This document shows positions 127 through 12,845 of a stretch of 14,366 nucleotides of DNA, in pieces. The stretch is from Acidobacteriota bacterium (GTDB taxonomy: Bacteria > Acidobacteriota > Terriglobia > UBA7540). Below the pieces are notes generated by a model that was not told where the DNA came from, ran no database searches, and saw only the letters and a list, made by a program, of their open reading frames with translations. The stretch lies in assembly GCA_021827245.1 (NCBI GenBank), contig JAKAWN010000147.1, positions 1 through 14,366 of the forward strand, in the 5' to 3' direction. Position 1 is the first letter of the stretch. Every line of letters begins with the position of its first letter. Both the position numbers and the translations under genes were made by a program.

Positions 127-405
127 TTAGCGCAGGCTGAATTCGACTCGTTTGCCAAGCAGATGCGCCACCTTGGCCATCGTATTGAGCGTTATAGATG
201 TGTTGGCGGGGTCCAGCAGCCGGTCAAGGCCGGTGCGGCTGGTCTTTAATCGCCGGGCCATTTCCATCTTGCTGATATGACTCTTGCGCATGGCCTTCTC
301 AAGCTCATGGGCAATCTTAAACTTAATGGCTGTCGCCCGGCACTCCTCCAGAATGCCGTCGTCCGCCAAAAACTCCTCAAAGCTGGAACCTATGTTTTTT
401 CGCAT
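127..405 (-). CDS. higA: HigA-type antitoxin, XRE-family HTH
   Basis: Predicted cytoplasmic antitoxin of 92 aa that should bind and neutralise the HigB-like toxin encoded just upstream and repress their shared promoter. The N-terminal half (GSSFEEFLADDGILEE...) is typical of antitoxins paired with Gp49-like toxins. A helix-turn-helix follows at about residues 44-70 (SKMEMARRLKTSRTGLDRLLD), then the usual tail (NTSITLNTMAKVAHLLGKRVEF). The start ATG lies 11 bases after the toxin stop, and its AGGTGG ribosome site overlaps that stop, so the two genes are translationally coupled. Toxin-first order is normal for higBA. Length and motif order look intact. Family membership is confident; activity is inferred. 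Confidence 0.85.
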   Translation of the reverse strand: MRKNIGSSFEEFLADDGILEECRATAIKFKIAHELEKAMRKSHISKMEMARRLKTSRTGLDRLLDPANTSITLNTMAKVAHLLGKRVEFSLR

Positions 406-416
406 TGCATTACCAC

Positions 417-761
417 CTATGCCAATTGATCGCGTCGTTTTTCCGCGATCTCAATTTCGTGCCGCGGTATTTTTTGCGTTTTCTTAACAAATCCGTGCAG
501 CAGTACCATCGTGCCGCCATGCACGCAAAAAATCACTCTTGCAATCCGTTCTCCAAGTCGGCTCCTGACCTCCCAAAGGCCATTACCCAGGCTGCCAACA
601 AGCGACCTACCGATTGGCCAGCAATATTGCACCTTAAGAACATCGGCACCAATTGCCTTTCGCTCCGCTTTGGGAAGCGCCTGCAGCCATTCACGAACCG
701 GCTCACTGCCGCTGTCCGTCCTGAAGAACATGGCATCGAGTGTTCGCTCAATATCAGTCAT
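417..761 (-). CDS. higB: HigB-type toxin, phage Gp49-like / RelE superfamily
   Basis: Predicted mRNA-cleaving toxin of 114 aa. The sequence follows the Gp49-like family from end to end: FFRTDSGSEPVREWLQALP near the N-terminus, then WPIGRSLVGSLGNGLWEVRSRL (about 48-69), RIARVIFCVHGGTMVLLHGF (about 72-91) and the basic end KKTQKIPRHEIEIAEKRR. Members of this family cleave translated mRNA when the partner antitoxin is lost. It is the first gene of a two-gene unit with higA. It starts about 250 bases after the stop of the SbcC-like gene and downstream of a good terminator, so it probably has its own promoter. The ATG is followed by a full-length, undamaged frame. Confidence 0.85.
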   Translation of the reverse strand: MTDIERTLDAMFFRTDSGSEPVREWLQALPKAERKAIGADVLKVQYCWPIGRSLVGSLGNGLWEVRSRLGERIARVIFCVHGGTMVLLHGFVKKTQKIPRHEIEIAEKRRDQLA

Positions 762-928: not shown

Positions 929-958
929 AAAAAAAGACTTGCCAGGAGGCTGGCAAAT
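929..958 (-). terminator. Rho-independent terminator of the eight-gene operon
   Basis: On the minus strand ATTTGCCAG and CTGGCAAGT form a 9-bp stem (one U-G pair) around a CCTC loop at 937-958. It is followed after one base by seven T at 935-929. It lies 54 bases after the TAA of the SbcC-like gene and before higB, so it should separate the two transcription units. Confidence 0.8.
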
Positions 959-1011: not shown

Positions 1012-3645
1012 TTACCGCAATGAAATACAGGTGGCCTCTCCGATGTTGCCATAGCGGTCCGGAACACAGGTGAAAATCACGATTTGGCACTCTTTGGCAG
1101 CTTTGGCCAACACGGCCCCCATGAGCCGCAGGCGGTTGTGGTCAGTGTAACCAAGGGCATCGTCCAGGATGAGCGGCATACCGCCATTCTGGGACACAAT
1201 CATCGAACATGCGGATCGGAAGATCAAAGAAAGCTGTTCTCGGGTGCCACCACTCAACGAATCAAACAATACGGTAATATTCTGCAACGTTCGACTCGTA
1301 ATCCGCAATTCCTCGCTGATATCCACTTGGAAGGAGTCATCGAACACCAGACGTCCGAGTTGCTCAATCTTTTCCTTCAGCGGAGCCACATACGCCCGCC
1401 GCACCTTGACCCGTTCCTCCCGCATGGTCTCAAAGAGGCATTTGGCAGAAGATGCTCGCCGATGAAGGGATGCAGAGTCTGTCATCAGACGTTCGCAAGC
1501 AGTCTGCGCCGCGTGTAGCTTCTCGTAAAGCCCCTCCTCACCGTGAATTTTCAGACGTGTCTGGACTACGGTTAGTTCAGTTTGAGCGGCATCCCGGCGA
1601 TTGTGGGTAGTTTGCAGGGAACCTTTGGCTGTTTCCGACAAGGCTTTCACCCTTTCGGGATTTTTCGTCCTGAGCGCCGTCTCGGCACATTGAACGCCGG
1701 CATTCTCAGAAGCCACGACCTGGACTGCCTGCGCCAGCGCCTTTTCCAAGCCATCATCGGAAATATTCTCGCGTGCCCGTTTAAGGTCTGCACGAGCTTG
1801 GATAAGGTGTTTGGACGAGAGATCGAGTGACGCCCGTGACTGGTGATGCTTTGTGTTGTGATCATTCCATACACCACGGGCCACATCCAAAGTTTGGTGG
1901 GCCAACTCACATGCGTGTGCTGCTTGCCGGTGGGTCAATTCACTGCTCTTCCATTCCTTTTCTGCCGATTCCAAATCAGGGCATATCGCAGGATGCTTTG
2001 CGCGGTTGCCAACGTAGGCTGGTACGGTTTGCTCAAGGCCCATAAGCATTTCCGCAAGCTTTTCGTATGTCAGATCGCGGAGATTTTCTTTTTCAATCTG
2101 CGTCTTGGCGGCTGCAACTCGTGAGGCCTCATTGCGGGTTTCGTAGGCCTGTCTGGCCTCACTTGGGCCGACAACACTGGCGTTTTCGCACAGGCAGTCC
2201 AATTCTCCCTGGCAGTCTACGACCCTTTTTTCGAGCTTTTCGAAGCTGGCACCAGCGATCACATCGATATTTAGCTTTTTAGGAATACTCAATCGCAGGT
2301 TGCTGGTGACAGTCAGTGATCGCTCGCTGCCCTTGCTCAGCGTCGTGTCTTTCCCGTCGATTATCATGAAACATTCGGCCAGGCTTTCAAGACGTACTTG
2401 AGGTGCGCCGGTTTCCAGCTTTGCTTTGGCAGCAAGCAGTTCCTTTTCCGCTGCTTCTATGGACTCCAGAACCCGCGCGGTCACCTTGTTACAACGAAGC
2501 AGTTTCTCGGCCTGCGCAGCGTTTTTTCTGGCTTCATCTATGCGGGACTTGCGTTCACCGAGTTGTTCGAGTTGCAATTTATTCTGATAATAGTCAAAAT
2601 CCGCCCGTCGAAGTTCGGCGTTCTTGTCTGCTAATTTTCTCACTTCATCAGCCTGACTGAATGTCACCTGTGTCTTCTTGAGTTCACGCTGGGCCTGCTC
2701 CAAGACTGGAACGGACATAGCACTTTCAGCATTGATCTTCTTGTATTCCTGATCAGCTTCGGCAACCCTCGTGATCAGCGCCTGGCGAAAGTCACGGTCG
2801 CGGTGTGCCGCTTCTTCGGATTGTTGGGCCGACTGCAGCTTCAAACGCGACGTTGAGAGCGCACCCTCCAAATCTCTGATCTCGGCAAGTGACGTTGTAT
2901 AGGCAGTGACCTCTTGAGTAAGTCTATCATCCTGTTCCTTCAATTGTGCCAATTCCTCCTGGAGAGAGGCGGTACGTTCGGTATCATCGTCGAGACTACG
3001 GATTGCTTGCTCGATATTGGAGGCTTCTTCTTCGGAGCGCGTCAATGCAGTACGTGCATCTGTCAGCTCTTTTCGCTCTGCACCGCGCTCGGTGTAATAA
3101 CGAAGGTATTCCGTTCGCACTTTGTCGAATAGGCCCACTTCGGCGGGATCGGTGGGACGGCCACCAGCCGCCTGATCCAACGCGGCTGAAAGTGATGTCT
3201 GCCTGGCCAGATCGGGCTGGTGGATGGCGTCGCCTTGCTGAATGGTCAGTGCCTTCCAGAGGTCAACGTCAAGCGTCTCGCGGAGGATGGCGTCAGCGCG
3301 TTCGTGTGCTTTGCGCCCTGTGTGGTTTTCCGGGTTGGGTTTTGTGATGATAAGTGTGGTTTCTGGTCGTTTCAGAAACCTCTTGAAGTACGTGAACGCG
3401 TAAGGCCCGCTTTCCGCTTGCAGCTCAATCTCCGGTCCCTCGTCTCTATGCACTGGCTTGACCGCTTCGACATTCCTATGCCTGCTGTTATCCAAATACT
3501 CGAAGAGAAGACCTATGGCTTCGCGAAGACTGGTTTTCCCAGCTTCATTGGGGCCCTGAATGAGTGTAATACCATCGGGACCGAACTTTACCTCGGCGGC
3601 GGTAATGCCCCTGTAATTGGCAACTCGAAGTCGAATGAATTTCAT
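1012..3645 (-). CDS. SbcC/Rad50-like SMC-type ATPase (YhaN-like AAA domain)
   Basis: An 877-aa coiled-coil ATPase, the expected partner of the SbcD/Mre11-like nuclease. The N-terminal lobe has Walker A GPNEAGKTS at 31-39 and a Q-loop-like segment LTIQQGDAIH at about 133-142. Long charged heptad-like stretches cover about 180-410 and 470-760. The C-terminal lobe has the ABC signature LSGGTREQ at 797-804, Walker B PLILDDALGYTD at 824-835 and the end strand VIFTCVPDRYG. No CxxC zinc hook is visible at the mid-point; instead about 413-465 looks beta-rich and the nearest Cys group is DCLC at 483-486. Walker B carries DD rather than DE, as often in the YhaN-like branch. ATG overlaps the upstream stop (ATGA) and has GGGAGG 5 bases ahead. 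Last gene of the operon. Confidence 0.85.
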   Translation of the reverse strand: MKFIRLRVANYRGITAAEVKFGPDGITLIQGPNEAGKTSLREAIGLLFEYLDNSRHRNVEAVKPVHRDEGPEIELQAESGPYAFTYFKRFLKRPETTLIITKPNPENHTGRKAHERADAILRETLDVDLWKALTIQQGDAIHQPDLARQTSLSAALDQAAGGRPTDPAEVGLFDKVRTEYLRYYTERGAERKELTDARTALTRSEEEASNIEQAIRSLDDDTERTASLQEELAQLKEQDDRLTQEVTAYTTSLAEIRDLEGALSTSRLKLQSAQQSEEAAHRDRDFRQALITRVAEADQEYKKINAESAMSVPVLEQAQRELKKTQVTFSQADEVRKLADKNAELRRADFDYYQNKLQLEQLGERKSRIDEARKNAAQAEKLLRCNKVTARVLESIEAAEKELLAAKAKLETGAPQVRLESLAECFMIIDGKDTTLSKGSERSLTVTSNLRLSIPKKLNIDVIAGASFEKLEKRVVDCQGELDCLCENASVVGPSEARQAYETRNEASRVAAAKTQIEKENLRDLTYEKLAEMLMGLEQTVPAYVGNRAKHPAICPDLESAEKEWKSSELTHRQAAHACELAHQTLDVARGVWNDHNTKHHQSRASLDLSSKHLIQARADLKRARENISDDGLEKALAQAVQVVASENAGVQCAETALRTKNPERVKALSETAKGSLQTTHNRRDAAQTELTVVQTRLKIHGEEGLYEKLHAAQTACERLMTDSASLHRRASSAKCLFETMREERVKVRRAYVAPLKEKIEQLGRLVFDDSFQVDISEELRITSRTLQNITVLFDSLSGGTREQLSLIFRSACSMIVSQNGGMPLILDDALGYTDHNRLRLMGAVLAKAAKECQIVIFTCVPDRYGNIGEATCISLR

Positions 3646-4772
3646 ACCGCCTCCCTTGCCAACCGCAACAGAAGCATCAAAGCTTCGCGGGCTTCTGTAC
3701 CTGCGATTCCACCGTCCACGATTTTGTTGCGTAGTCGTTGAACCGTTGCATCGGCAAAACCCGAAAATCCGAGATTCGTAAAATCTGTATCGTCAGGTAC
3801 GAGGAGAAGTTCCTCATCCCGAACATCGAAAGCCCCAAATACATCTTGTGCGGCAGTAAGATGATTTTGAAGTGCTCCGCTCAATGTCAGAGAAAGTGAG
3901 CCAACGAGGTTCAACCGAATCACCGTGCGGTCCTTATTGTCGATCTCTTCCAGTGATTTCCGTAATGCTTCTACATCGTCGGCGGCATTGAGGTCAACCC
4001 GTGCCCGCTCGATGAACCGCCACTGCCCTATCTGGACTGGTTTGGTAGTTATACGATCTTCACCAACTTCCACGATCTGGGCATAACCGGATTGCACCTC
4101 TCCAAAATCCGTGCTCTCCGGTGTTCCTGAATACCAAATACGGTCGCCAACACCGACCTTGGTCAAGGAATGTCGGTCACCAAGCGCCACAAAGTGAACC
4201 TTTCCTTCGCCTATGGCGCGGTCGAGTGTGGCAACTGCAATAGTCCCGGCGGCATGCCGGTCGGGCGTGAGTGTATCGACGGCCCCATGCCCCATACAAA
4301 TACGGATGGTTCCTTTCGCAGGCACGAGGGCTTTGATCGCATCGGTAATGGGATTGGTTACGGGTCGTTTCGACATCCACGGCGAGCCGACCATTTCCAC
4401 TCCGTCAGCAATCTTGATGGGGGCAGAAGTTTCGATTACCTGCACTTGGTCGGGCTTCCTCTCATTGAAAGTGCTTGAGCGATAAACGGAAGCTGCATTC
4501 AACGGGTCATGGTTGCCGGGAAGGAGGAACACTGGAATGGGCACGTCCTTGAGCGCCTCCAGAGCGCGGGCAACGGTTTTCCGGTCCACTTGGTTCGATT
4601 CAAATACGTCGCCACACACCAGCATAAACTGGCACTTCTCGTCTCTGGCAATGCGCCCCATGGCACGAATTGCATCGAATCGCGCCTGGCTATAGCGGTC
4701 CTGTGCGCCTTCTGAAAGGAAGTGACGGGTCATGCCCAACTGCCAGTCGCTTGTATGAAGAAAACGAATCAT
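3642..4772 (-). CDS. SbcD/Mre11-like metallophosphoesterase, DNA-end nuclease
   Basis: A 376-aa calcineurin-like phosphoesterase, predicted to cut DNA ends together with the SbcC-like ATPase, whose gene overlaps its stop by ATGA. Metal-site motifs appear in order: D9-W-Q11 (usually DxH), GD55 in GDVFES, GNHD at 86-89, GH at 161-162, and GDRH at 198-201 (usually GHxH). The Q in motif I and the D in the last motif occur in a known DNA-repair branch of the family (HTADWQ type), so they need not mean loss of activity. Residues after about 240 form the capping/DNA-contact region. The ATG has AGAGGA about 6 bases upstream and lies 45 bases after herA. A broken copy of its 5' end is found at 11039-11236. 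Confidence 0.85.
   Translation of the reverse strand: MIRFLHTSDWQLGMTRHFLSEGAQDRYSQARFDAIRAMGRIARDEKCQFMLVCGDVFESNQVDRKTVARALEALKDVPIPVFLLPGNHDPLNAASVYRSSTFNERKPDQVQVIETSAPIKIADGVEMVGSPWMSKRPVTNPITDAIKALVPAKGTIRICMGHGAVDTLTPDRHAAGTIAVATLDRAIGEGKVHFVALGDRHSLTKVGVGDRIWYSGTPESTDFGEVQSGYAQIVEVGEDRITTKPVQIGQWRFIERARVDLNAADDVEALRKSLEEIDNKDRTVIRLNLVGSLSLTLSGALQNHLTAAQDVFGAFDVRDEELLLVPDDTDFTNLGFSGFADATVQRLRNKIVDGGIAGTEAREALMLLLRLAREAV
4578..4772 (-). repeat. 5' segment of the SbcD-like gene, diverged direct repeat of 11039-11236
   Basis: The first ~65 codons of the intact gene match the decayed copy at 11039-11236 in the same orientation. Over the first 39 bases 32 are identical. Later blocks such as KCQFxLV and VFES also match once frameshifts are allowed for. 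The two copies start 6464 bases apart and bracket the genes for HerA, NurA, the IrrE-like protease, the HTH protein, the sigma factor and the methyltransferase. Confidence 0.8.
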
Positions 4773-4817
4773 AGATGTCCTCTAATAAAGGCTTTACGCC
4801 GTGCCGTTTGTCCGGAA

Positions 4818-6638
4818 TCACTGCGTCATCAGCAATCGACACGGTGCCGGATCGATTGCCGTCTGCACAGGCCGGGTGTGAGACGTGAACGAACAAATCG
4901 CCTGACCGGCGGCGAGTGATGGTAAGTGATGCCACAATGATGCCTCAATTCCACCAATCGATCGTTGAAGCCGGTTGATTACATTGGCATCGCTAATCTT
5001 GTGCAAAATCCAGTTGTTAATCAGCCCAAGAACCTCGTCCGGCAGATGTTGTGGAAGCTGCGTGACGAAACACAGGCCCAACCAGCGTTTCCGGCCGCGA
5101 CGGGCAATACGGGCAACTTGCTGGAACAGCACGGGCATCTGCTTGATCCGATTCGCGGAAAGGAATTCGTGTGCCTCTTCGATGAACACCATCGTCGGTG
5201 TCGGTGATTTCCCCGCTTTGGAGGCGGCACGGTAATTCTCTTCCTGTTGCCGTTGAATACCGCGAAGAAGATCGGCGATTACAAGGTTGTTCACTTGGGG
5301 CGAGTCGGTGTCACTGAGGTCGATGACGGTAACGCGGCCAGGCTGGAGCATGTTACCAAAATCCACCGGAGCAGCTTTCTTTGAGTCAAACACGCCTAAC
5401 CGCTTCAACCGCCCAAGCTTGCCCAGGAGAGCGCGCCAGCTAAATACATGCTTGGGTGGGTCTGCACTTCCGATAATCTGTTTTAGGATCGCCACGTTAG
5501 ATTGAAATGTAGAATCAGTTAAATATGGGTCAGTGGTCTTCTTGTCAACAATCGCCTCGATCAATAACGCGATGTCGCATAGTTGTGTGAGCGTCATTGT
5601 AGGGTAACCTGAGTCGAACTCATCGAGGTCGAGTAACTGAACCTGGTCTTCTGGCGTTTTTGGCCAAATCTTAAGACGCTCTAGAGCGCGTTTGCAAATG
5701 TCGTAGGCCTTGATGAACCGTTCTTCTTGTGCGTCGCTAAACTCTAAGATTTCCTTGACGGCATATGGAGAGAAGGCCGAGAATGGCAGGCTAAACGGCA
5801 AAATCTTTTGGTGTCTTGGGTTTGCACAGTCTCTGCCAACGAGGTGAAGGATGTGCGTGTTGACGACGCCAGCCGGTTTGCGACCACGGCGCTCCAGGGC
5901 CTCTTTCATGACCGGATTGTCGGTTGGCTCGTGAATGGCGCAGTACTCGCCCTCGGTGTCGATCAGGACCACGGACATTTCACGTTGCTGGAGCTGCGCT
6001 ATAAGTCCAGATACCGTGGTCGACTTTCCACCACCGGTTGTACCGAGGATTCCCAGGTGGCGCGGAAATACGGCCTTGCTATTGGATGGAATACGAACCT
6101 CCAAATCATCAAATCCATCGGCAAGCCCCAGGCAAATATCCCCGCCAAGACGAAGGACAGCGGACGTCTCCACCTTGTCCAGAACAAACACGGGGCTGTT
6201 AGGTTTCGGGCGTCGGCGGGGTGGAACGATGGTGCCAGTCTCGAGTCGTTCCCCGATCAGTGCTAACTGGCCGCGCCCGTGAAATGGTGGCATCAAAAGC
6301 CCGCCGCGGACTGTGGAAGCAATGATAGGTGTGGCATCTGCAGAGAGACCATCTGGTTCGGCAAACGGACCCGCTACAACTGCCGCAAGGTATTCACGGT
6401 TATCCGGGAGGCTGTGAATTCGCACCAGCGCTTGGCTGGGCAGGGTATCAATGGAGTCCTTTGGCAGCAAGATCGTGACGGTCCCGTCTTCGCTCCTGCC
6501 AGAATCAAACATGGTTACGCCAACACTGCCGTTATACGCCGGCGGTCGCGACCATGGACCCCCGGCCCTCTTTCCATCCTGCTCTATTCGCTGAAACACT
6601 TCGGTGGGTGTTGCTTCGATACCGCTTTCAGTGGCCAT
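4818..6638 (-). CDS. herA: HerA-type hexameric DNA translocase ATPase
   Basis: A 606-aa member of the FtsK-HerA superfamily, expected to form a hexamer that pumps duplex DNA into its NurA partner. The first ~110 residues are beta-rich and fit a HAS-barrel region. Walker A is GTTGGGKST at 199-207. A strand with DTEGEY (227-232) follows, then Walker B PTMVFIEEAHEFL at about 481-493. The arginine-finger/sensor block RIARRGRKRWLGLCFVTQLP is at 510-529 and the HerA-like end block NNWILHKISDANVINRL at 541-557. I chose the ATG at 6638 because GGAGAT lies 9 bases ahead of it. Starts at 6656 (ATG) or 6680 (GTG, overlapping the nurA stop as GTGA) have no clear ribosome site but would add 6 or 14 residues. 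Translationally close to nurA, as in archaea. Confidence 0.88.
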   Translation of the reverse strand: MATESGIEATPTEVFQRIEQDGKRAGGPWSRPPAYNGSVGVTMFDSGRSEDGTVTILLPKDSIDTLPSQALVRIHSLPDNREYLAAVVAGPFAEPDGLSADATPIIASTVRGGLLMPPFHGRGQLALIGERLETGTIVPPRRRPKPNSPVFVLDKVETSAVLRLGGDICLGLADGFDDLEVRIPSNSKAVFPRHLGILGTTGGGKSTTVSGLIAQLQQREMSVVLIDTEGEYCAIHEPTDNPVMKEALERRGRKPAGVVNTHILHLVGRDCANPRHQKILPFSLPFSAFSPYAVKEILEFSDAQEERFIKAYDICKRALERLKIWPKTPEDQVQLLDLDEFDSGYPTMTLTQLCDIALLIEAIVDKKTTDPYLTDSTFQSNVAILKQIIGSADPPKHVFSWRALLGKLGRLKRLGVFDSKKAAPVDFGNMLQPGRVTVIDLSDTDSPQVNNLVIADLLRGIQRQQEENYRAASKAGKSPTPTMVFIEEAHEFLSANRIKQMPVLFQQVARIARRGRKRWLGLCFVTQLPQHLPDEVLGLINNWILHKISDANVINRLQRSIGGIEASLWHHLPSLAAGQAICSFTSHTRPVQTAIDPAPCRLLMTQ

Positions 6639-6645
6639 ATATTGT

Positions 6646-6651
6646 ATCTCC
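6646..6651 (-). promoter_or_regulatory. Ribosome-binding site deciding the herA start
   Basis: The minus strand reads GGAGAT here, with 9 bases between GGAG and the ATG at 6638. The upstream alternatives (ATG 6656, GTG 6680) lack a comparable purine block. This favours the shorter HerA protein. Confidence 0.55.
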
Positions 6652-6676
6652 AGCATGAACCAAATATCCGGGTTAC

Positions 6677-7912
6677 TCACCGTCGCGATGCTCGCTCTGC
6701 CAAGTAACGGAAAGGCTCGCCAGCGTCCGCATACGCAAGTTGGTTCGTAGCGGCAAACGTGTCGCCGCCAAACATCATCTGGCAGACCTTGTCTGCCAGG
6801 TCAATCAGCATTGGAAAACCGCGATGTTCTTGAAGAACGCTGTCGGCCAGCGCCAGGAGTGCCGCTTCATGTACGTGGTCGGCATGGGCATAGAACACTT
6901 GGGCCGGCGCATACTGTGATGCCCGGTACACGCCAATGAGAACCTTGTCACCCGCCACATTGACAAAATCTTCCACGGCGTTCTTCGCTGCGCCCCAGTG
7001 TTGTCCACGGTAATGGCCTTGGGCAATCCGCTCAAGTTTCATCTTCAGAGAGTCCACAATGGCATATTCCAAGGGCTGCAGGGCGCCGCCGATCGTAAGT
7101 AGTTCGCGTTCGTTTGGACCACTGGGTACATACACGAACTTTCCGAACGCGATCAATTCCTTGAGCAGATTGACACCCATCTCACAAAGTTGTGGACTAC
7201 CTGATCCTGTTACCAACTCATAGGCCAGAGGATTGCCGTGGCCCATCCGCCAGACCGCCGTAGATTTTTTCAGCAGCACGGCGCGCTCGGCAAAAGCCAT
7301 GATTCCACGACGGGCCAAATCGCTGAGTTGATCTCGTTTTGAGGGTTGGTCTGCGCTCCCACGGCTACGCCGACGTTCCAGCAATTCAAGGGTTTCCTCA
7401 ATGGCGCTGGCACCCGATACACGTAGATCACGACGGAAAAGCCGATGTCCCCAAGAGCCCTGGTCACCCCGGTACGATACCAAACTCACGCCGATCTGGG
7501 TGATTGTAACGGGCAGAGTATCGTGTGTGGCAATGGTGCCGTCACAGGCCTCAACACCACCATTGAAAAGTAGCCGACTGTGAATCGTCTCTACCTGCTC
7601 TATGGATGTGCGGTACACGCCAGCACCTGCGGGTGCTTGGGGGCGAGATTTTAGCAACGGAAATATCCTGTCGCGGATTTCGCGGTGCATTTGGCTTTCC
7701 TGACGCACCGCATCGGACACTTCAGCCTGGACCCGCTCATACATCGCCGCTAATTCTGCCCCAGGCCGCCAAGTGTCGAGGTCCAGAGTGTTTTCGAGTG
7801 GCTCTCCGAAGGCTGACTGAAAGTCGGAAGCGCCTACCGCTGCGATTTCTGTGTCGTCGATCGGTTTTTTGACGAGGGCTTCGTCCATTGGTTCACTCGC
7901 TGGGTGGTTCAT
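6677..7912 (-). CDS. nurA: NurA-like DNA nuclease
   Basis: A 411-aa protein that fits NurA, the nuclease that works inside the HerA hexamer. Visible hallmarks are a beta strand with the acidic motif EACDGT (121-126; NurA motif DG[ST]), the helical segment with MAFAERAVLLKK (about 205-216), and a C-terminal GFPMLIDLADKVCQMMF block (365-381). That last block matches the NurA ending of the form GYPxPLIxAH. The second acidic strand motif usual in NurA (DGxL) is not clear; MGHGNPLAYEL stands at about that position. The N-terminal ~95 residues are acidic and helical with no motif I know. I chose the ATG at 7912, with AGGG 10 bases upstream; a longer frame to 8038 would overlap the upstream gene. 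The stop overlaps the possible GTG start of herA. Confidence 0.72.
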   Translation of the reverse strand: MNHPASEPMDEALVKKPIDDTEIAAVGASDFQSAFGEPLENTLDLDTWRPGAELAAMYERVQAEVSDAVRQESQMHREIRDRIFPLLKSRPQAPAGAGVYRTSIEQVETIHSRLLFNGGVEACDGTIATHDTLPVTITQIGVSLVSYRGDQGSWGHRLFRRDLRVSGASAIEETLELLERRRSRGSADQPSKRDQLSDLARRGIMAFAERAVLLKKSTAVWRMGHGNPLAYELVTGSGSPQLCEMGVNLLKELIAFGKFVYVPSGPNERELLTIGGALQPLEYAIVDSLKMKLERIAQGHYRGQHWGAAKNAVEDFVNVAGDKVLIGVYRASQYAPAQVFYAHADHVHEAALLALADSVLQEHRGFPMLIDLADKVCQMMFGGDTFAATNQLAYADAGEPFRYLAERASRR

Positions 7913-7983
7913 AAAGGTACATCCCTGAAAACTATCACCGAATCTACTTCCGCGCCCACGATGAAAGTGCGACGTACGGAATC

Positions 7984-8721
7984 TCACTTCATTCCCAACC
8001 AGTCCCTCATCGACGGTGCCGGCTTGGCCGATACCCACAAGACACGGGCATATGCGTTGGCACTCGACTCTGGTAGGCCGAACTCCGTACGCAAGAGCAT
8101 ACTGATGGGATCGACCTGTGATTGGTCAATAAATCTCCTCGCCCTGGTGAATATTTCTCGCCGAGGTGCCAGCAATTCAAGTGCAAGCATATCGGCCAAG
8201 TCCTCCTGGGCCACTGCGCGGGTATCTCGTGCCAAGCCAAGCGGGCCACGTAACCAGAGTCGGGAATACACCCCAAGAGTTACCCCGCGTAACACGGCCG
8301 ATAGTCGTTCGGCCGGTGAAGGAGCGCGAGCACCGTCCAGGACCGACAAGATGGTCAATCCGAAGGTGTGAATGGCACGATCTCGTGGGAATACATAGTC
8401 CAGAAGGAAGTGTGCAAGCTCATGCGCAAGGGACATCCGCTGTTCGTCGGCTGGATCACTGCCGTCAATGAAGATCACGCCGTGCCCACGGGAGGCCACC
8501 ACACATGCTCTCAACTCTCGTTCACCAGCGGGCACGATGGCTGGGAGTCCGTATTCTGACAGCCATGCACGAACAGAAGCAATGCGAAGCCTTGGAAGTT
8601 TCACTACCGCGAGCGGCAATGCCCACAGGATTGATGCCTCGATGTTGCGCGGAAAACCTTCGGAGCCCCCGGCAGTTCGCCAGAAATCTGCGGCGATCTT
8701 GCGGATGTCGTTATTGTCCAT
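7984..8721 (-). CDS. ImmA/IrrE-family zinc metallopeptidase
   Basis: A 245-aa protein with the ImmA/IrrE (COG2856-type) active site HELAH at 100-104 (zinc ligands H100 and H104, catalytic E101). A likely third ligand is E173 in QEDLADMLALELLAP, the usual ExxA(N/D)xxAxxLLxP block. Family members cleave HTH repressors: ImmA cleaves ImmR in ICEBs1, and IrrE/PprI cleaves DdrO in Deinococcus. Its own sequence has no HTH; the candidate substrate is the HTH protein of the preceding gene. I take the ATG at 8721, which has AAAGGCGG 5 bases ahead and overlaps the HTH stop by 11 bases. The longer frame from 8811 would overlap by 101 bases. It is the third gene of the putative regulatory trio. Confidence 0.82.
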   Translation of the reverse strand: MDNNDIRKIAADFWRTAGGSEGFPRNIEASILWALPLAVVKLPRLRIASVRAWLSEYGLPAIVPAGERELRACVVASRGHGVIFIDGSDPADEQRMSLAHELAHFLLDYVFPRDRAIHTFGLTILSVLDGARAPSPAERLSAVLRGVTLGVYSRLWLRGPLGLARDTRAVAQEDLADMLALELLAPRREIFTRARRFIDQSQVDPISMLLRTEFGLPESSANAYARVLWVSAKPAPSMRDWLGMK

Positions 8722-9115
8722 GTTCACCGCCTTTCGGATCGGTGGAGTCTCTTGGACTGGCAAGGCGATCCCTGGCCGCCAACAGGGTATTGGTGTTCTG
8801 ATTAGTGTCACAGGCAGATAATGACTTTATCGCCATGGCTTTCCGCACAATTTGCGCCAGCATTGTCGGATTGCAACGGGCAAAGGCGGCTATTTTCTTG
8901 ATGTCCTGCCGAAACCACTTGACGTCTTCCCGAGGACAACGGCACAAAGCCAATCGCGTAATTTGGTTCGGTTCACATCCAAGTTGTTTTGCCAGCTCTA
9001 GTTGTGAAAGCTGATCGCGCCTGGCAACAAAGGAAAACAAATGGCCAAGGAAAAATGTATCCAGGCTGGCCTTTTCTACCGCACGTTCCAGGACGCGGGG
9101 CAGGGCATCATTCAT
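8711..9115 (-). CDS. Small helix-turn-helix protein, candidate regulator and protease substrate
   Basis: A 134-aa protein with a predicted HTH at about 37-58 (LSQLELAKQLGCEPNQITRLALC), followed by PREDVKWFRQDIKKIAAFARCNPTML. This resembles the XRE-like fold but with an atypical LALCRCPRED stretch after the recognition helix. The tail after about 100 is low-complexity and probably disordered, a plausible place for cleavage. The gene lies between the sigma factor (8-base overlap at the start, GGGAGA ribosome site) and the IrrE-like protease (11-base overlap at the stop). I infer a repressor or sigma antagonist acting with both. Whether it binds DNA or the sigma factor cannot be told from the sequence. 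Confidence 0.65.
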   Translation of the reverse strand: MNDALPRVLERAVEKASLDTFFLGHLFSFVARRDQLSQLELAKQLGCEPNQITRLALCRCPREDVKWFRQDIKKIAAFARCNPTMLAQIVRKAMAIKSLSACDTNQNTNTLLAARDRLASPRDSTDPKGGEHGQ

Positions 9116-9746
9116 TGTCGGTCTCCCGCAACGAGCGTTTCAGTCGCTTCATCAACCGATCCTTTACCTGCTTCACCTTTTGCCTCTGTTCTTTCAGAGG
9201 TTTGTCGGCAATTCCGAGGGCCTGCGCATATTCATCCGTTCGTCGAATGCCGTCTGACATCAACCTGAACACTGCAGCCTCCACCGGTGAAAGCGAAGCT
9301 ATCTCGGCATTGACTCTCTCGCGACACGAGCCCGTTGTTTCCAGTTCCGCGAGAAAAGCCAATGGGCTTTCTTGATCCTTCTTCCGCGCCGGATCATGGA
9401 GTGCGACATCCTTGAAACGGGCAATCCGACCTTGCTGCCGGCGCTCTTTCACCAAAAGATTGCTTAAGTTGCGCTGCGCAGCCATCTCAAGAAAGGACCA
9501 AATACTGGATCGGCCGTGTACATAAACTTGAGGGGATTTCACGAAGTCCAAGACGGCATCTGTTGATGCCTCGTCAGCCATATTTTCATCACGGAGGTCT
9601 TTGTTGGTGATTCGCAAGACTTCCGCTAATGGTGGAATCACCAGTTCGGCGAATTCTGCTGGGGCTATGGTGTCGCCAGCAACGAGGCGCTGGTGAATAG
9701 ACAGCAGTTGTTCAGGATCGGGTTTTGTGAACATAGTAAGCGTCAC
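9108..9746 (-). CDS. ECF-type RNA polymerase sigma factor
   Basis: A 212-aa protein with a sigma-70 region 2 at about 11-107. It includes the -10-binding helix region SSIWSFLEMAAQRNLSNLLVKERRQ (80-104), which parallels the ECF pattern WLxxIARNxxxDxxRRxxR. A region 4-like HTH lies at about 143-203 (AEIASLSPVEAAVFRLMSDG ... QKVKQVKDRLMKRLKRSL). There is no region 1 or 3, as in ECF factors. It probably directs RNA polymerase to the operon's own promoter or to unlinked targets. The start used is GTG at 9746, overlapping the methylase stop as GTGA; an ATG at 9734 would shorten it by 4 residues, and neither has a strong ribosome site. A sigma factor inside a nuclease operon is unusual. Confidence 0.72.
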   Translation of the reverse strand: MTLTMFTKPDPEQLLSIHQRLVAGDTIAPAEFAELVIPPLAEVLRITNKDLRDENMADEASTDAVLDFVKSPQVYVHGRSSIWSFLEMAAQRNLSNLLVKERRQQGRIARFKDVALHDPARKKDQESPLAFLAELETTGSCRERVNAEIASLSPVEAAVFRLMSDGIRRTDEYAQALGIADKPLKEQRQKVKQVKDRLMKRLKRSLRETDNE

Positions 9747-11029
9747 TGCTTTCGCAGACCAAGAAATACCTCGCCTTCCATGCGAAGGGCCAGTGCATTA
9801 CCACGTTTGGCTGCTGCTGGCGGCGGCAATGACCGCCGGCCTCCTTCAAGTGGACGGAAAGACGATCCAACATTCTCCAATCCCACTGATTCAGCTAAGT
9901 TGCCAATTACATTCCCGGCGTCAGACTTGTTTTGCGAAATTAAAGAAGGCCCCAGCGCGATTATAGCGGCACCGCCTGGCTTGAGAACACGATTTATTTC
10001 AAGCAGTACCTGGCGTACATCGGAAAGATACCGCCTCACGATTGCCAAGCGGGTTCTATCATCAATGCTATCGACGATAGAGGTTTCCAGATGTGATGGC
10101 AGACTATCGGGACAATACATCCCGCGCTCGGTACCTACCATTTCAGACCGGACAGTGCGTAAAGCTGACAGTTCATAACCCATCCACACTAAGGAAAACT
10201 TGTGGGTACGTACGTAGTCGATAGCGTTAAGATAAGGGGGTGATGTCACGACCAGATTGACGGAAGCATCCTCGACGGGCAATTTACGGGCATCGGCATG
10301 TTCGATCCGCGCCCGCACAGGGGGCACACTGTCAACCGTAAACGGTAGACGATCTACTACCACCTTCGAACGTCGGCGCCATGCATCGAAACCGTCGGGG
10401 ACAGGTTTGTCTTTCACCTTGTGCGGGCGGGAACGCGAAATATCAAGTGCATAAGAGACGCCAGCCGACTTGGCGATTATCAGGCTCGATAGCGTAATCC
10501 AAGCGAGGTCACGGTACTTGCCCGCCGGTTCGGCGGCAATTTCCTCGGTCAGCGCAAATAACTGTTTTTGGGAGCATGTTGGGAACCAATACTTGAGAAA
10601 GTCTTGGCCCTCGGAATTGAAGGCCTTTCGCACCGTGTCCACGTATAACCCATGTGCGGCGTGTCGCTCTGCCCGTTCGAGTATTTGTGCCAACCTCTTC
10701 GTAGCAATTTCGCGCTTATAAGCAGTCGTGGCGACGCGAGACAGCAGGAGAGCCATAGGGTCGATGTCGGTTCCAATCACCGCGCGGTGGGCGCGAAGGC
10801 TGGCTGTGGCCGTAGAACCGGAGCCTACCATCGGGTCGAGCACAATGTCGCCTTTGGCTGTAAGGGCCACGACGATTTCCTCCGCCAGCCAAATGGGCAT
10901 CCTGGCCGGGAAGGGGTGAAACCGCGCCCCATCCGAGTGCGAGTGGCTGTTTCCCTTGCTGCTCGCGATCCTTTTGAGTACATCTCGGATCGAATTGTTA
11001 GATCGCAGTTGCAACTTCACACCTTCCAT
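9743..11029 (-). CDS. DNA methyltransferase, amino-methylating (N4-C/N6-A) type
   Basis: A 428-aa SAM-dependent DNA methylase. The order is HPFPARMPIWLAEEIV (38-53), SAM site VLDPMVGSGSTATASL (63-78) with the acidic GTDIDPMA (86-93), then the catalytic motif TSPPYLNAIDYVRTHKFSLVWMG (262-284). A C-terminal Rossmann-type strand region follows with EINRVLKPGGAAIIALG (344-360). SPPY-type motifs belong to enzymes methylating exocyclic amines; TSPPY favours N4-cytosine, but N6-adenine cannot be excluded. The ~180 residues between the motifs may hold target recognition. It is the first intact gene of the operon, with a start at ATG 11029 and only a weak GGAT ahead. In context it may protect host DNA from the downstream nuclease set. 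Confidence 0.85.
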   Translation of the reverse strand: MEGVKLQLRSNNSIRDVLKRIASSKGNSHSHSDGARFHPFPARMPIWLAEEIVVALTAKGDIVLDPMVGSGSTATASLRAHRAVIGTDIDPMALLLSRVATTAYKREIATKRLAQILERAERHAAHGLYVDTVRKAFNSEGQDFLKYWFPTCSQKQLFALTEEIAAEPAGKYRDLAWITLSSLIIAKSAGVSYALDISRSRPHKVKDKPVPDGFDAWRRRSKVVVDRLPFTVDSVPPVRARIEHADARKLPVEDASVNLVVTSPPYLNAIDYVRTHKFSLVWMGYELSALRTVRSEMVGTERGMYCPDSLPSHLETSIVDSIDDRTRLAIVRRYLSDVRQVLLEINRVLKPGGAAIIALGPSLISQNKSDAGNVIGNLAESVGLENVGSSFRPLEGGRRSLPPPAAAKRGNALALRMEGEVFLGLRKQ

Positions 11030-11038
11030 TTCATCCGG

Positions 11039-11236
11039 ATTTTTCTACTGACCTACCGAATCGGACTCGAATACCGTGTGCCACCAGCACAAACTGGCAT
11101 TTTCCTTCTGTGGTGGTGCATACCGTGACATGAACCGTGTCGTATCGCGCTGGGTATCGTGTTCCCATGAGCCATCAGCAATGAAATGTCGGGGCGAGGC
11201 TAATTGCCGGTCATTTGTATGAAGAAAACGAACCAT
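11039..11236 (-). pseudogene. Decayed 5' fragment of an SbcD/Mre11-like gene
   Basis: Starting at ATG 11236, with an intact AAGGAG ribosome site 5 bases upstream, the minus strand encodes MVRFLHTNDRQL...RHF..DG, which aligns with MIRFLHTSDWQL...RHF..EG of the intact gene. After the Q at codon 29 a 1-base deletion moves the matching frame (RYDTV...KCQFVLV against RFDAI...KCQFMLV). A 2-base deletion near codon 53 restores it (VFES), and a TAG follows four codons later before homology ends. W10 of motif I has become R and the GD55 motif is lost. Read straight through, it looks like a 64-residue frame, but the alignment shows a dead remnant. It ends about 10 bases before the methyltransferase start codon. 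Confidence 0.85.
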
Positions 11237-11774: not shown

Positions 11775-11801
11775 TCCCATAAATCGGTGCGGGAGAATAT
11801 C

Positions 11802-12845
11802 GTGGGTAAAGAGAACCTGTCGTGGAGCGGGATTTTAACCGAACTCATTGCCAGCGGAGCGCCGGGGGCAAGACCCGATTATGATGGGGTGCGGCGTAAA
11901 TATCTGAATCGTCTGGCAGAGAGAACCAAGCGCCATACCATCCTGTATGCAACGAAGTTCACCCAACGCGATCCCAATTTGCCACCCGAATTGATAAGTA
12001 TTGTTGATGAAGATGTTCAGGGTTTAATGGAAGTTGTCCACGGCTCTAAGACGAAAAAGCTGGACTTAATACTTCATAGTCCGGGCGGTTCCTTGGACGC
12101 TGCGGAGGGAATTGTTAATTATCTCCGGGAGAAGTTCTCCGATATTCGGGTCATCGTCCCTCAGCTCGCGCAGTCGGCAGCCACGATGATATGTTGTGCG
12201 GCCAATGAAGTGATGATGGGAGCACATTCATCACTCGGGCCTATTGATCCGCAGATTTTTGTTAATACACCCTTGGGATCAAAATTTGTTCCCGCACAAG
12301 CAATTATAGACCAGTTTGAACAGGCTAAGCAGGAGTGCGCCGATAAAAACAAAGTGACCGCGTGGCTGCCAATGCTCACCCAATACGGTCCGCATTTAGT
12401 CAAGACCTGTAGCTACCTCACAGAGCTTTCTTCTGAACTGGTGGAAGAGTGGTTGGCCCGGTATATGTTTCATGGCAGAGACGCTTCAAAAAAGGCGAAA
12501 AGATTGGCTGGGTGGTTGTCCGACCACAAAAAATTTAAGACCCACGCAAGGCATATCCCGCGAAGTAAACTCAAGCGAATGGGTATGAATATTACAAAGC
12601 TGGAGGATGATCAGACAATCCAAGATCTTGCACTTGCCGCGTTTCACGCGACAACTCATGCTTTTGACGGCACAAACGTCGTTAAGATAATTGAAAATCA
12701 GTTCGGAAAATCTTTTATGAAGATAGTTTTGGTGCGACAGGCTTTCCCGTTTCCGCTACCGATTCAATCCCCCGTACCAACACCAACCCCTATGCTGCCG
12801 AGGCAAACGCCCGTGCCCGCGCAATCCATACTAAAACCGCATTAG
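11802..12845 (+). CDS. SDH-family Clp-fold serine protease (SppA/ClpP-like)
   Basis: A 347-aa protein of the serine dehydrogenase proteinase-like family, related to SppA and ClpP. The core has LDLILHSPGGSLDAAEGIVNYL (87-108; SPGG is the oxyanion-side loop), then VIVPQLAQSAATMICCAANEVMMG (117-140) with S125 as the likely nucleophile, and HSSLGPIDPQ (142-151). Downstream Lys residues could serve as the general base. No membrane segment is evident, so it is probably cytoplasmic. The tail after about 314 is Pro-rich (PFPLPIQSPVPTPTPMLP) and low complexity. I chose GTG 11802, with GGGAG 6 bases ahead; the GTG at 11787 would add 5 residues but has no ribosome site. Its partner is the 76-aa gene. 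The substrate is unknown. Confidence 0.8.
   Translation: MGKENLSWSGILTELIASGAPGARPDYDGVRRKYLNRLAERTKRHTILYATKFTQRDPNLPPELISIVDEDVQGLMEVVHGSKTKKLDLILHSPGGSLDAAEGIVNYLREKFSDIRVIVPQLAQSAATMICCAANEVMMGAHSSLGPIDPQIFVNTPLGSKFVPAQAIIDQFEQAKQECADKNKVTAWLPMLTQYGPHLVKTCSYLTELSSELVEEWLARYMFHGRDASKKAKRLAGWLSDHKKFKTHARHIPRSKLKRMGMNITKLEDDQTIQDLALAAFHATTHAFDGTNVVKIIENQFGKSFMKIVLVRQAFPFPLPIQSPVPTPTPMLPRQTPVPAQSILKPH

What the first reader, a model, noticed from the sequence alone, without database searches (positions are those of the whole stretch)
1012..11029. Eight-gene operon joining a DNA methylase, a self-contained regulatory trio and a full HerA-NurA-Mre11-Rad50 end-resection set
Seen: eight same-strand genes, most junctions overlapping by 3-11 bases, closed by one strong terminator. 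Known: HerA, NurA, Mre11 and Rad50 cooperate in archaeal DNA-end resection, and methylases beside nucleases usually mark self DNA. Inferred: a multi-subunit restriction-like or anti-phage system in which translocase, nuclease and SMC-type end processing act on unmethylated or broken foreign DNA. I know of no named defence system with exactly this gene set.
Basis: partly seen in the sequence, partly recalled or inferred. Interest (0 to 1): 0.88.

Follow-up and report, generated by a model that had tools for sequence, protein, structure and literature searches.

The report
Transferable DNA-degrading bacterial immunity cassette
This genome carries a small set of genes (sigma factor, repressor, protease, nuclease, DNA pump, usually a methylase) that recurs together in many unrelated bacteria, often beside CRISPR genes, and probably switches on DNA destruction during invasion; the Mre11-Rad50-like pair behind it here looks like an exchangeable add-on.

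Summary
The eight-gene operon is real (window 11029-1012, minus strand; five of seven junctions overlap by 4-11 nt; a terminator-like hairpin follows). The eight genes are not one conserved set. The conserved unit is a five-gene core, ECF sigma, HTH, IrrE, NurA-fold nuclease, HerA: all five lie together in 42 of 46 genome loci retrieved with the NurA protein, from at least ten phyla, usually with a methylase (34 of 47 loci). It is sporadic: 1 of 392 genomes sampled in the window's phylum. Sigma and HTH families are practically exclusive to the core. Cas1 lies within 12 kb in 12 of 46 genomes (0.35 expected). What follows HerA varies: cas genes (13 of 46), UvrD/AddAB-like helicase-nucleases (5), an SbcDC-like pair (1), or nothing on that strand. 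The window's SbcDC sits, at 79% identity, behind a type III restriction system in relatives; fossils of that arrangement flank the operon. Most likely: an inducible anti-invader cassette in which IrrE inactivates the repressor, sigma drives expression and HerA-NurA destroys DNA. Regulation and activity are inferred; no experiment was possible. No named system with this gene set was found in the searches made. New variant of HerA-nuclease defence.

The parts
9743..11029 (-). MT: amino-methylase (N4-cytosine or N6-adenine), motifs DPMVGSGS and TSPPY
   Evidence: PF01555 over cut-off; motifs located; same family in 34 of 47 loci
9108..9746 (-). ECF-type sigma factor
   Evidence: Model pLDDT 89; sigma-factor structures fill the 50 rows shown, as far as titles tell; profile match beside NurA in 44 of 46 genomes
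8711..9115 (-). Small HTH-like protein, presumed repressor, with C-terminal LxAAR tail (residues 111-115)
   Evidence: Beside NurA in 45 of 46 genomes; AAR in 27 of 27 aligned; HTH nature rests on sequence look and a weak MarR hit, E 0.11
7984..8721 (-). ImmA/IrrE-type metallopeptidase (ATG 8721 adopted; ORF runs to 8811)
   Evidence: PF06114 over cut-off; HExxH and distal Glu in 29 of 29
6677..7912 (-). NurA-fold nuclease (ATG 7912 adopted; ORF runs to 8038)
4818..6680 (-). HerA translocase, Walker A GTTGGGKST, Walker B region FIEEAHEF
   Evidence: PF01935 and PF05872 over cut-offs; 46-77% identical in 12 aligned relatives
3642..4772 (-). Divergent SbcD/Mre11-like phosphoesterase (accessory)
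   Evidence: PF00149 over cut-off; 79% identical copy behind a type III restriction layout in G065/G066
1012..3645 (-). Divergent SbcC/Rad50-like ATPase without CxxC hook (accessory)
   Evidence: AAA_15 and AAA_27 over cut-offs; no CxxC; 79% identical copy in G065/G066
937..958 (-). Terminator-like hairpin behind the operon
11082..11236 (-). Fossil of an sbcD 5' end upstream of MT
   Evidence: 72% over 156 alignment columns to the window's sbcD, E 4e-18; 41% over 63 residues
847..884 (-). Fossil of a type III mod gene start
   Evidence: 97% over 38 nt to the mod start of G065/G066, E 2e-12

Best explanation
The window holds a horizontally spread, self-regulated anti-invader cassette: a core of ECF sigma, HTH repressor, IrrE protease, NurA-fold nuclease and HerA, usually with a methylase, and an exchangeable slot behind HerA that here holds a divergent SbcDC pair. 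Proposed working: (1) invader or damaged DNA gives a signal, probably single-stranded DNA, that activates IrrE (inferred from PprI-DdrO and CapP-CapH); (2) IrrE inactivates the HTH protein, perhaps at its conserved LxAAR tail (inferred from the motif); (3) the ECF sigma drives the operon (inferred); (4) HerA pumps double-stranded DNA into NurA, which degrades it (fold and gene pairing shown, activity inferred); (5) the methylase marks host DNA where it is present (inferred; 13 of 47 loci have none in the held flanks); (6) the downstream module, here SbcDC, is co-expressed and adds DNA-end processing (inferred). Shown here: gene content and order, conservation, near-exclusivity of the sigma and HTH families to the core, CRISPR linkage, sporadic spread, and that SbcDC is not a fixed part.
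For: All five core genes together in 42 of 46 genome loci. Sporadic: 1 of 150 relatives and 1 of 392 genomes of the phylum sample; the NurA tree forces at least three label changes for Planctomycetota. Cas1 within 12 kb in 12 of 46 genomes against 0.35 expected; cas genes behind HerA in 13 of 46. IrrE active-site residues in 29 of 29; AAR tail in 27 of 27 aligned HTH proteins and in 18 of 21 loci not aligned. HTH and IrrE lie in one reading frame in L016. NurA and sigma folds. Precedent for ssDNA-activated IrrE-type proteases (PMC10904395, passages) and for a self-active, toxic HerA-nuclease that needs control (PMC11291478, passages).
Against: No functional data. The NurA call rests on a model of moderate confidence (64.8); Foldseek alone is weak (best E 0.46), profile comparison with five canonical NurAs failed and Pfam NurA did not match. 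The methylase is missing from the held flanks of 13 of 47 loci and changes place and strand, so it may not be the self-mark of the system. No CRISPR gene is near the window's cassette and G001 has no Cas1 match at all. That IrrE cleaves the HTH protein and that sigma drives this operon are untested. Some partners behind HerA look unrelated to defence (L019, L047).
Confidence: 0.55

Rival explanations
1. A DNA-damage-inducible repair operon: the trio senses damage and induces HerA-NurA (and SbcDC) for end resection before recombination, with no role against invaders.
For: HerA-NurA serves end resection in archaea (PMC12977600, abstract start in the listing); IrrE-type proteases serve the Deinococcus damage response (PMC10904395).
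Against: Found in 1 of 150 relatives and 1 of 392 phylum genomes, unlike a repair backbone; at least five of 15 carrier genomes tested have a separate canonical NurA; association with cas genes and a methylase.
Confidence: 0.15
2. A CRISPR helper module: HerA-NurA makes or trims DNA ends for spacer acquisition or repairs arrays; copies without CRISPR, like this one, are remnants or act on distant CRISPR loci.
For: Cas1 enrichment; cas genes directly behind HerA; NurA and HerA listed as putative CRISPR auxiliary genes (PMC10910872, legend) and nurA-csm6-herA beside arrays in Pyrobaculum (PMC3396285).
Against: 33 of 46 genome loci show no cas genes behind HerA (five of these end at the contig edge); 11 of 46 genomes have no Cas1 match; G001 has none.
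Confidence: 0.15
3. The eight genes are one machine: methylation-guided HerA-NurA-Mre11-Rad50 restriction, with SbcDC as an obligate part in this lineage.
For: Tight colinearity and one shared terminator-like site; archaeal operons join the same four activities (Constantinesco 2004, seen only as a reference title in PMC3396285).
Against: The same SbcDC lineage stands behind a type III restriction layout in relatives without the cassette; an SbcD relative is found in only 1 of 47 other loci; fossils of the other arrangement flank the operon.
Confidence: 0.1

Closest known systems
DUF4297-HerA anti-phage complex (PMC11291478; passages read)
   Same: HerA hexamer ATPase encoded with a nuclease; would act as a DNA pump plus cutter
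   Different: The nuclease here is NurA-fold, not DUF4297; sigma, HTH, IrrE and methylase are added; the effector slot is variable
HerA-NurA end-resection complexes of archaea and Deinococcus
   Same: NurA-fold protein next to HerA; structure rows 1-8
   Different: Not matched by Pfam NurA nor by profile comparison; carried sporadically, with its own regulators
PprI-DdrO and CapP-CapH protease-repressor switches (PMC10904395; passages)
   Same: IrrE-type protease encoded beside a small HTH-like protein; PADLOC capP is the best defence-library hit of the IrrE protein, E 5e-5
   Different: An ECF sigma is always nearby; the HTH family and its LxAAR tail are specific to this core; cleavage untested
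CapK/CapS regulators upstream of diverse immune operons (PMC13373217; abstract read)
   Same: A regulator pair placed ahead of exchangeable immune operons and answering DNA damage
   Different: Kinase-repressor, not protease-repressor; no HerA-NurA stage in the abstract
CRISPR-linked NurA/HerA genes: Pyrobaculum nurA-csm6-herA (PMC3396285, passages) and putative CRISPR auxiliary genes (PMC10910872, figure legend)
   Same: NurA and HerA beside CRISPR loci
   Different: Archaeal clusters hold csm6, and Pfam NurA detects their NurA; the legend does not tell which family or neighbours are meant; no sigma, HTH, IrrE in the passages seen
HerA/FtsK capture and BREX-related capture systems (PMC10853773, PMC12839542; passages)
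   Same: HerA with exchanged partners in anti-invader loci
   Different: Their listed parts (PglZ, DUF6079, DUF4007, Orc/Cdc6, GNAT, TGT) were not hit by these proteins; neither text holds the word NurA

Membership tests
NurA nuclease | Match to Pfam NurA (PF09376) | tested here: not met
   No hit at E<=5; in 15 genomes searched at E<=10 none of the matches lies at the cassette
NurA nuclease | NurA fold | tested here: met
NurA nuclease | Complete catalytic metal site | tested here: inconclusive
   An Asp in a DG motif is invariant (41 of 41); the other ligands could not be mapped
HerA | HerA domains with Walker motifs | tested here: met
   PF01935, PF05872 over cut-offs; motifs
ECF sigma factor | Sigma regions 2 and 4 in fold | tested here: met
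ECF sigma factor | Match to Pfam sigma-70 region families | tested here: not met
   None among hits at E<=5; best PDB profile hit RpoE, E 0.028
ImmA/IrrE peptidase | M78 domain with HExxH and third ligand | tested here: met
   PF06114 over cut-off; 29 of 29
SbcCD / Mre11-Rad50 | Family-level profile match | tested here: not met
   TIGR00619 51.0 against cut-off 77.65; SbcC below the cut-offs of all six families hit
SbcCD / Mre11-Rad50 | Metal motifs DxH and GHxH; zinc hook CxxC | tested here: not met
   DWQ and GDRH in SbcD; no CxxC in SbcC; activity not excluded by this
DUF4297-HerA, SIR2-HerA | Partner nuclease of those families | tested here: not met
   NurA-like protein has no Pfam or PADLOC hit
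Any system in PADLOC-DB 2.0.0 | Models for the signature proteins of one system | tested here: not met
   NurA-like, HTH and sigma proteins: no hit at E<=0.01; other proteins hit HerA, MTase_II, weak capP and AriA models of different systems
Anti-phage defence system | Protection against phage or plasmid | not testable with these tools
   Needs an experiment

The most novel reading that the evidence does not exclude
The core is a general-purpose, transferable sense-and-destroy front end. A trio specific to it (ECF sigma, HTH with an LxAAR tail acted on by the protease, IrrE) switches on HerA-NurA and whatever stands in the slot behind it: CRISPR-Cas of several kinds, including one with a C2c1/Cas12b-like effector, AddAB-like or UvrD/DnaQ nucleases, or an SbcDC-like pair. 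Self-discrimination can be by methylation or be handed to CRISPR guidance, which would explain why CRISPR-linked copies more often lack the methylase (7 of 13 loci without it are CRISPR-linked, against 6 of 34 with it; Fisher P 0.026, noticed after the fact).
Probability: 0.3. Interest if true: 0.85.

Novelty: new variant of a known kind. Interest (0 to 1): 0.72.

Why it matters
If right, one inducible DNA-destruction cassette serves as a shared ignition stage for innate and adaptive immunity across many phyla, linking a damage-sensing protease to HerA-NurA and to CRISPR. It would make testable how DNA-degrading or spacer-acquiring machinery is kept silent until invasion, and would give a family and a likely role to a large set of unnamed proteins (2467 NurA-like homologues at E<=1e-3 among 7999 candidates scored). 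It also shows that a striking gene set in one operon can be a recent assembly of mobile defence modules.

Tried and rejected
Rejected: HerA-NurA-SbcDC as one inherited set. Rejected: SbcDC as a resident housekeeping pair: of 61 relatives only G001, G065 and G066 carry a close full-length SbcD; four more have a fragment (G059) or weak matches (G051, G077, G086). G065 and G066, binned in different genera, share at least 18,001 identical bp, so they are one observation, either recent transfer or bin contamination.

Tried without result: Rfam, tRNA, plasmid collection (no match in 72,556 records), CRISPR arrays inside the loci (only L015; flanks are short), profile comparison of cassette NurA with five canonical NurAs, PDB sequence searches with NurA (nothing credible). 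Viral contigs gave one relative, L048.

Literature: (open-licence PMC papers only). No listed paper or passage read describes the sigma-HTH-IrrE-NurA-HerA set; that is no proof of absence. PMC8616872 and PMC10013973 (passages) only report herA/nurA co-activation by Csa3a. PMC10855626 and PMC12887533 were opened for NurA and show it in reference titles.

Caveats: loci were retrieved with two peptide patterns of one NurA branch, so breadth is a lower bound and the sample leans to that branch. A2 was built from the window and 33 loci (32 of the 46 genome loci), A4 from the window and 26 (25 of 46); only the other 14 and 21 genome loci test them independently: sigma beside NurA in 11, broken in 1, partial in 1, absent in 1 of 14; HTH in 20 of 21. 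The LxAAR pattern used was looser ([LVIMF]xAAR); two further matches in the same stretches give a rough background. The 12-kb Cas1 limit was set after seeing the distances; within 5 kb there are 7 of 46. Uniform placement is a lenient null, as defence genes cluster, and no matched-gene control was run. Neighbour ORFs are mechanical picks, not gene predictions; labels other than those with Pfam support are BLAST clusters. Most loci are metagenome bins. In the NurA tree the bootstrap had not settled. Frames are damaged in some loci (L043; L040 HerA in two pieces).
Full report
OBSERVATION. Eight minus-strand ORFs fill 11029-1012. Using ATG 8721 for IrrE and ATG 7912 for NurA, five of seven junctions overlap by 4-11 nt and two have gaps of 71 and 45 nt. 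A terminator-like hairpin follows SbcC. The nearest held genome, G001, shares 100% of the window's sampled words; there the operon lies near the end of an 84.7-kb contig.

THE CONSERVED UNIT. A scan of the species-genome collection with the NurA alignment gave 46 loci and a scan of viral contigs one. With window proteins as tblastn queries, of these 47 loci IrrE was found in 47, HerA in 46 (in L024 the contig ends after NurA), sigma in 44, HTH in 39, methylase in 33 and SbcD in 1. With profiles, the sigma family lies beside NurA in 44 of 46 genomes (broken by stops in G043; a 45-residue partial match in G037; none beside NurA in G016), and no copy away from the cassette scores above 46.3 bits, while the cassette copies score 66.8 to 256.9. 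The HTH family lies beside NurA in 45 of 46 genomes, with two weak matches elsewhere. All five core genes lie together, without the broken G043, in 42 of 46. A methylase of the same family is in 34 of 47 loci: upstream on the same strand in 27, upstream on the other strand in 4, downstream on the other strand in 3; 13 have none in the held flanks, two of which hold under 4 kb upstream. So the methylase is a frequent partner, not a fixed part.

IT MOVES. The cassette NurA is in 1 of 150 relatives and 1 of 392 genomes drawn evenly from the phylum, each time G001 itself. The 36 NurA sequences in the tree come from ten named phyla (names follow the submitters' titles). The tree needs at least three label changes for Planctomycetota on well-supported branches, although its bootstrap had not settled.

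IT SITS WITH IMMUNE GENES. Cas1 (PF01867) occurs in 35 of 46 of these genomes; in 12 it lies within 12 kb of the cassette NurA on the same contig (G003, G006, G008, G012, G013, G015, G023, G026 as a partial match at the contig end, G027, G034, G036, G045), in 7 of them within 5 kb; in G031 it lies 29 kb away. Uniform placement predicts 0.35 genomes within 12 kb, Poisson P about 5e-15; the limit was chosen after seeing the distances. L020 has Cas6 and a Cas3-like gene without Cas1 on the contig, which makes 13 of 46 loci with cas genes behind HerA. In L015 the next genes are a Cas1-containing ORF, a small ORF and a 1541-residue protein with C2c1/Cas12b domains. Other partners: UvrD-type helicases, with DnaQ or a sacsin-like ATPase (L017, L018, L032, L043), an AddAB-like pair (L041), RNase H-DEAD (L046), an SbcDC-like pair (L011). 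In ten loci (L010, L021, L025, L030, L031, L033, L035, L038, L039, L042) the next ORF of 90 or more residues is on the other strand, so the core can apparently stand alone. L019 and L047 have genes behind HerA with no evident link to defence. In L002, L009, L014, L024 and L028 the contig ends there. G001 itself has no Cas1 match.

THE SbcDC PAIR IS AN ADD-ON. Of 61 relatives only G001, G065 and G066 carry a close full-length homologue of this SbcD. In G065/G066 SbcD and SbcC are 78-79% identical to the window's and directly follow a methylase (PF01555) and a ResIII protein, a type III restriction-modification layout; the cassette NurA is absent from all 150 relatives but G001, and a VirB4/TrbE-like gene lies about 1.2 kb further on. 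The two contigs are identical over 18,001 bp and count once. G059 has a HerA-like gene, a methylase, two other ORFs, a ResIII protein and then a truncated SbcD. In the window, an sbcD 5' fossil (72% over 156 columns) lies upstream of MT, and 38 nt at 97% identity to the mod start of G065/G066 lie just past the hairpin. The simplest account is exchange of modules at this spot. The window SbcD has DWQ for DxH and GDRH for GHxH, and SbcC has no CxxC; L011's SbcD keeps DIH and GHVH and is 26% identical, so the two associations look independent.

MECHANISM. Shown: composition, order, near-exclusivity of sigma and HTH families, motif conservation, linkage, spread. Inferred: IrrE, perhaps activated by ssDNA as in PprI-DdrO and CapP-CapH (PMC10904395, passages), acts on the HTH protein; the sigma factor then drives the operon; HerA feeds DNA to NurA; MT protects host DNA. 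Tight control fits the report that DUF4297-HerA is active by itself and toxic (PMC11291478, passages). That regulator pairs stand upstream of varied immune operons is already described for CapK/CapS (PMC13373217, abstract).

PRIOR ART. nurA-csm6-herA clusters beside CRISPR arrays in Pyrobaculum (PMC3396285, passages) and the listing of NurA and HerA as putative CRISPR auxiliary genes (PMC10910872, figure legend) mean that a HerA-NurA/CRISPR link as such is not new. HerA/FtsK capture and BRC systems are described without NurA. The searches listed under Tried and rejected gave no description of the sigma-HTH-IrrE-NurA-HerA set.

VERDICT. New variant of HerA-nuclease immunity; interest 0.72.

Noticed in passing
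L069:8956-14600 (-), L070:4046-12320 (+): Type III restriction-modification pair (methylase, ResIII) followed directly by an SbcDC-like pair, about 1.2 kb from a VirB4/TrbE-like gene; possibly a defence module on a conjugative element, identical in two genome bins of different genera.
   Followed up: partly
window 127-405 (-) and 417-761 (-): A Gp49-like (DUF891) protein followed by a small HTH protein, the layout of a HigBA-type toxin-antitoxin pair, beside the operon.
   Followed up: no
window 11787-12845 (+): A ClpP-like SDH-type serine protease gene next to the operon on the other strand.
   Followed up: no
L016:8041-9894: HTH and IrrE lie in one 617-residue reading frame (a possible fusion), and no sigma factor of this family lies beside NurA in that genome.
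   Followed up: partly
L015:13155-19700: A Cas1-containing ORF and a C2c1/Cas12b-like protein directly behind HerA: a single-effector CRISPR system in the cassette's downstream slot.
   Followed up: partly
L048: The only copy found in viral contigs; a serine recombinase gene lies about 0.6 kb beyond the methylase, so the contig may be an integrative element rather than a virus.
   Followed up: no
L043 (sigma, HerA and UvrD regions): Several genes are in broken frames: a decayed copy of the cassette or poor assembly.
   Followed up: no
L021:13175-16015 (-): A SEFIR/TIR protein with NACHT and TPR domains next to the core on the other strand.
   Followed up: no
L027:13168-14259, L045:7886-8920: WYL-domain regulators stand between HerA and the cas genes.
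   Followed up: no
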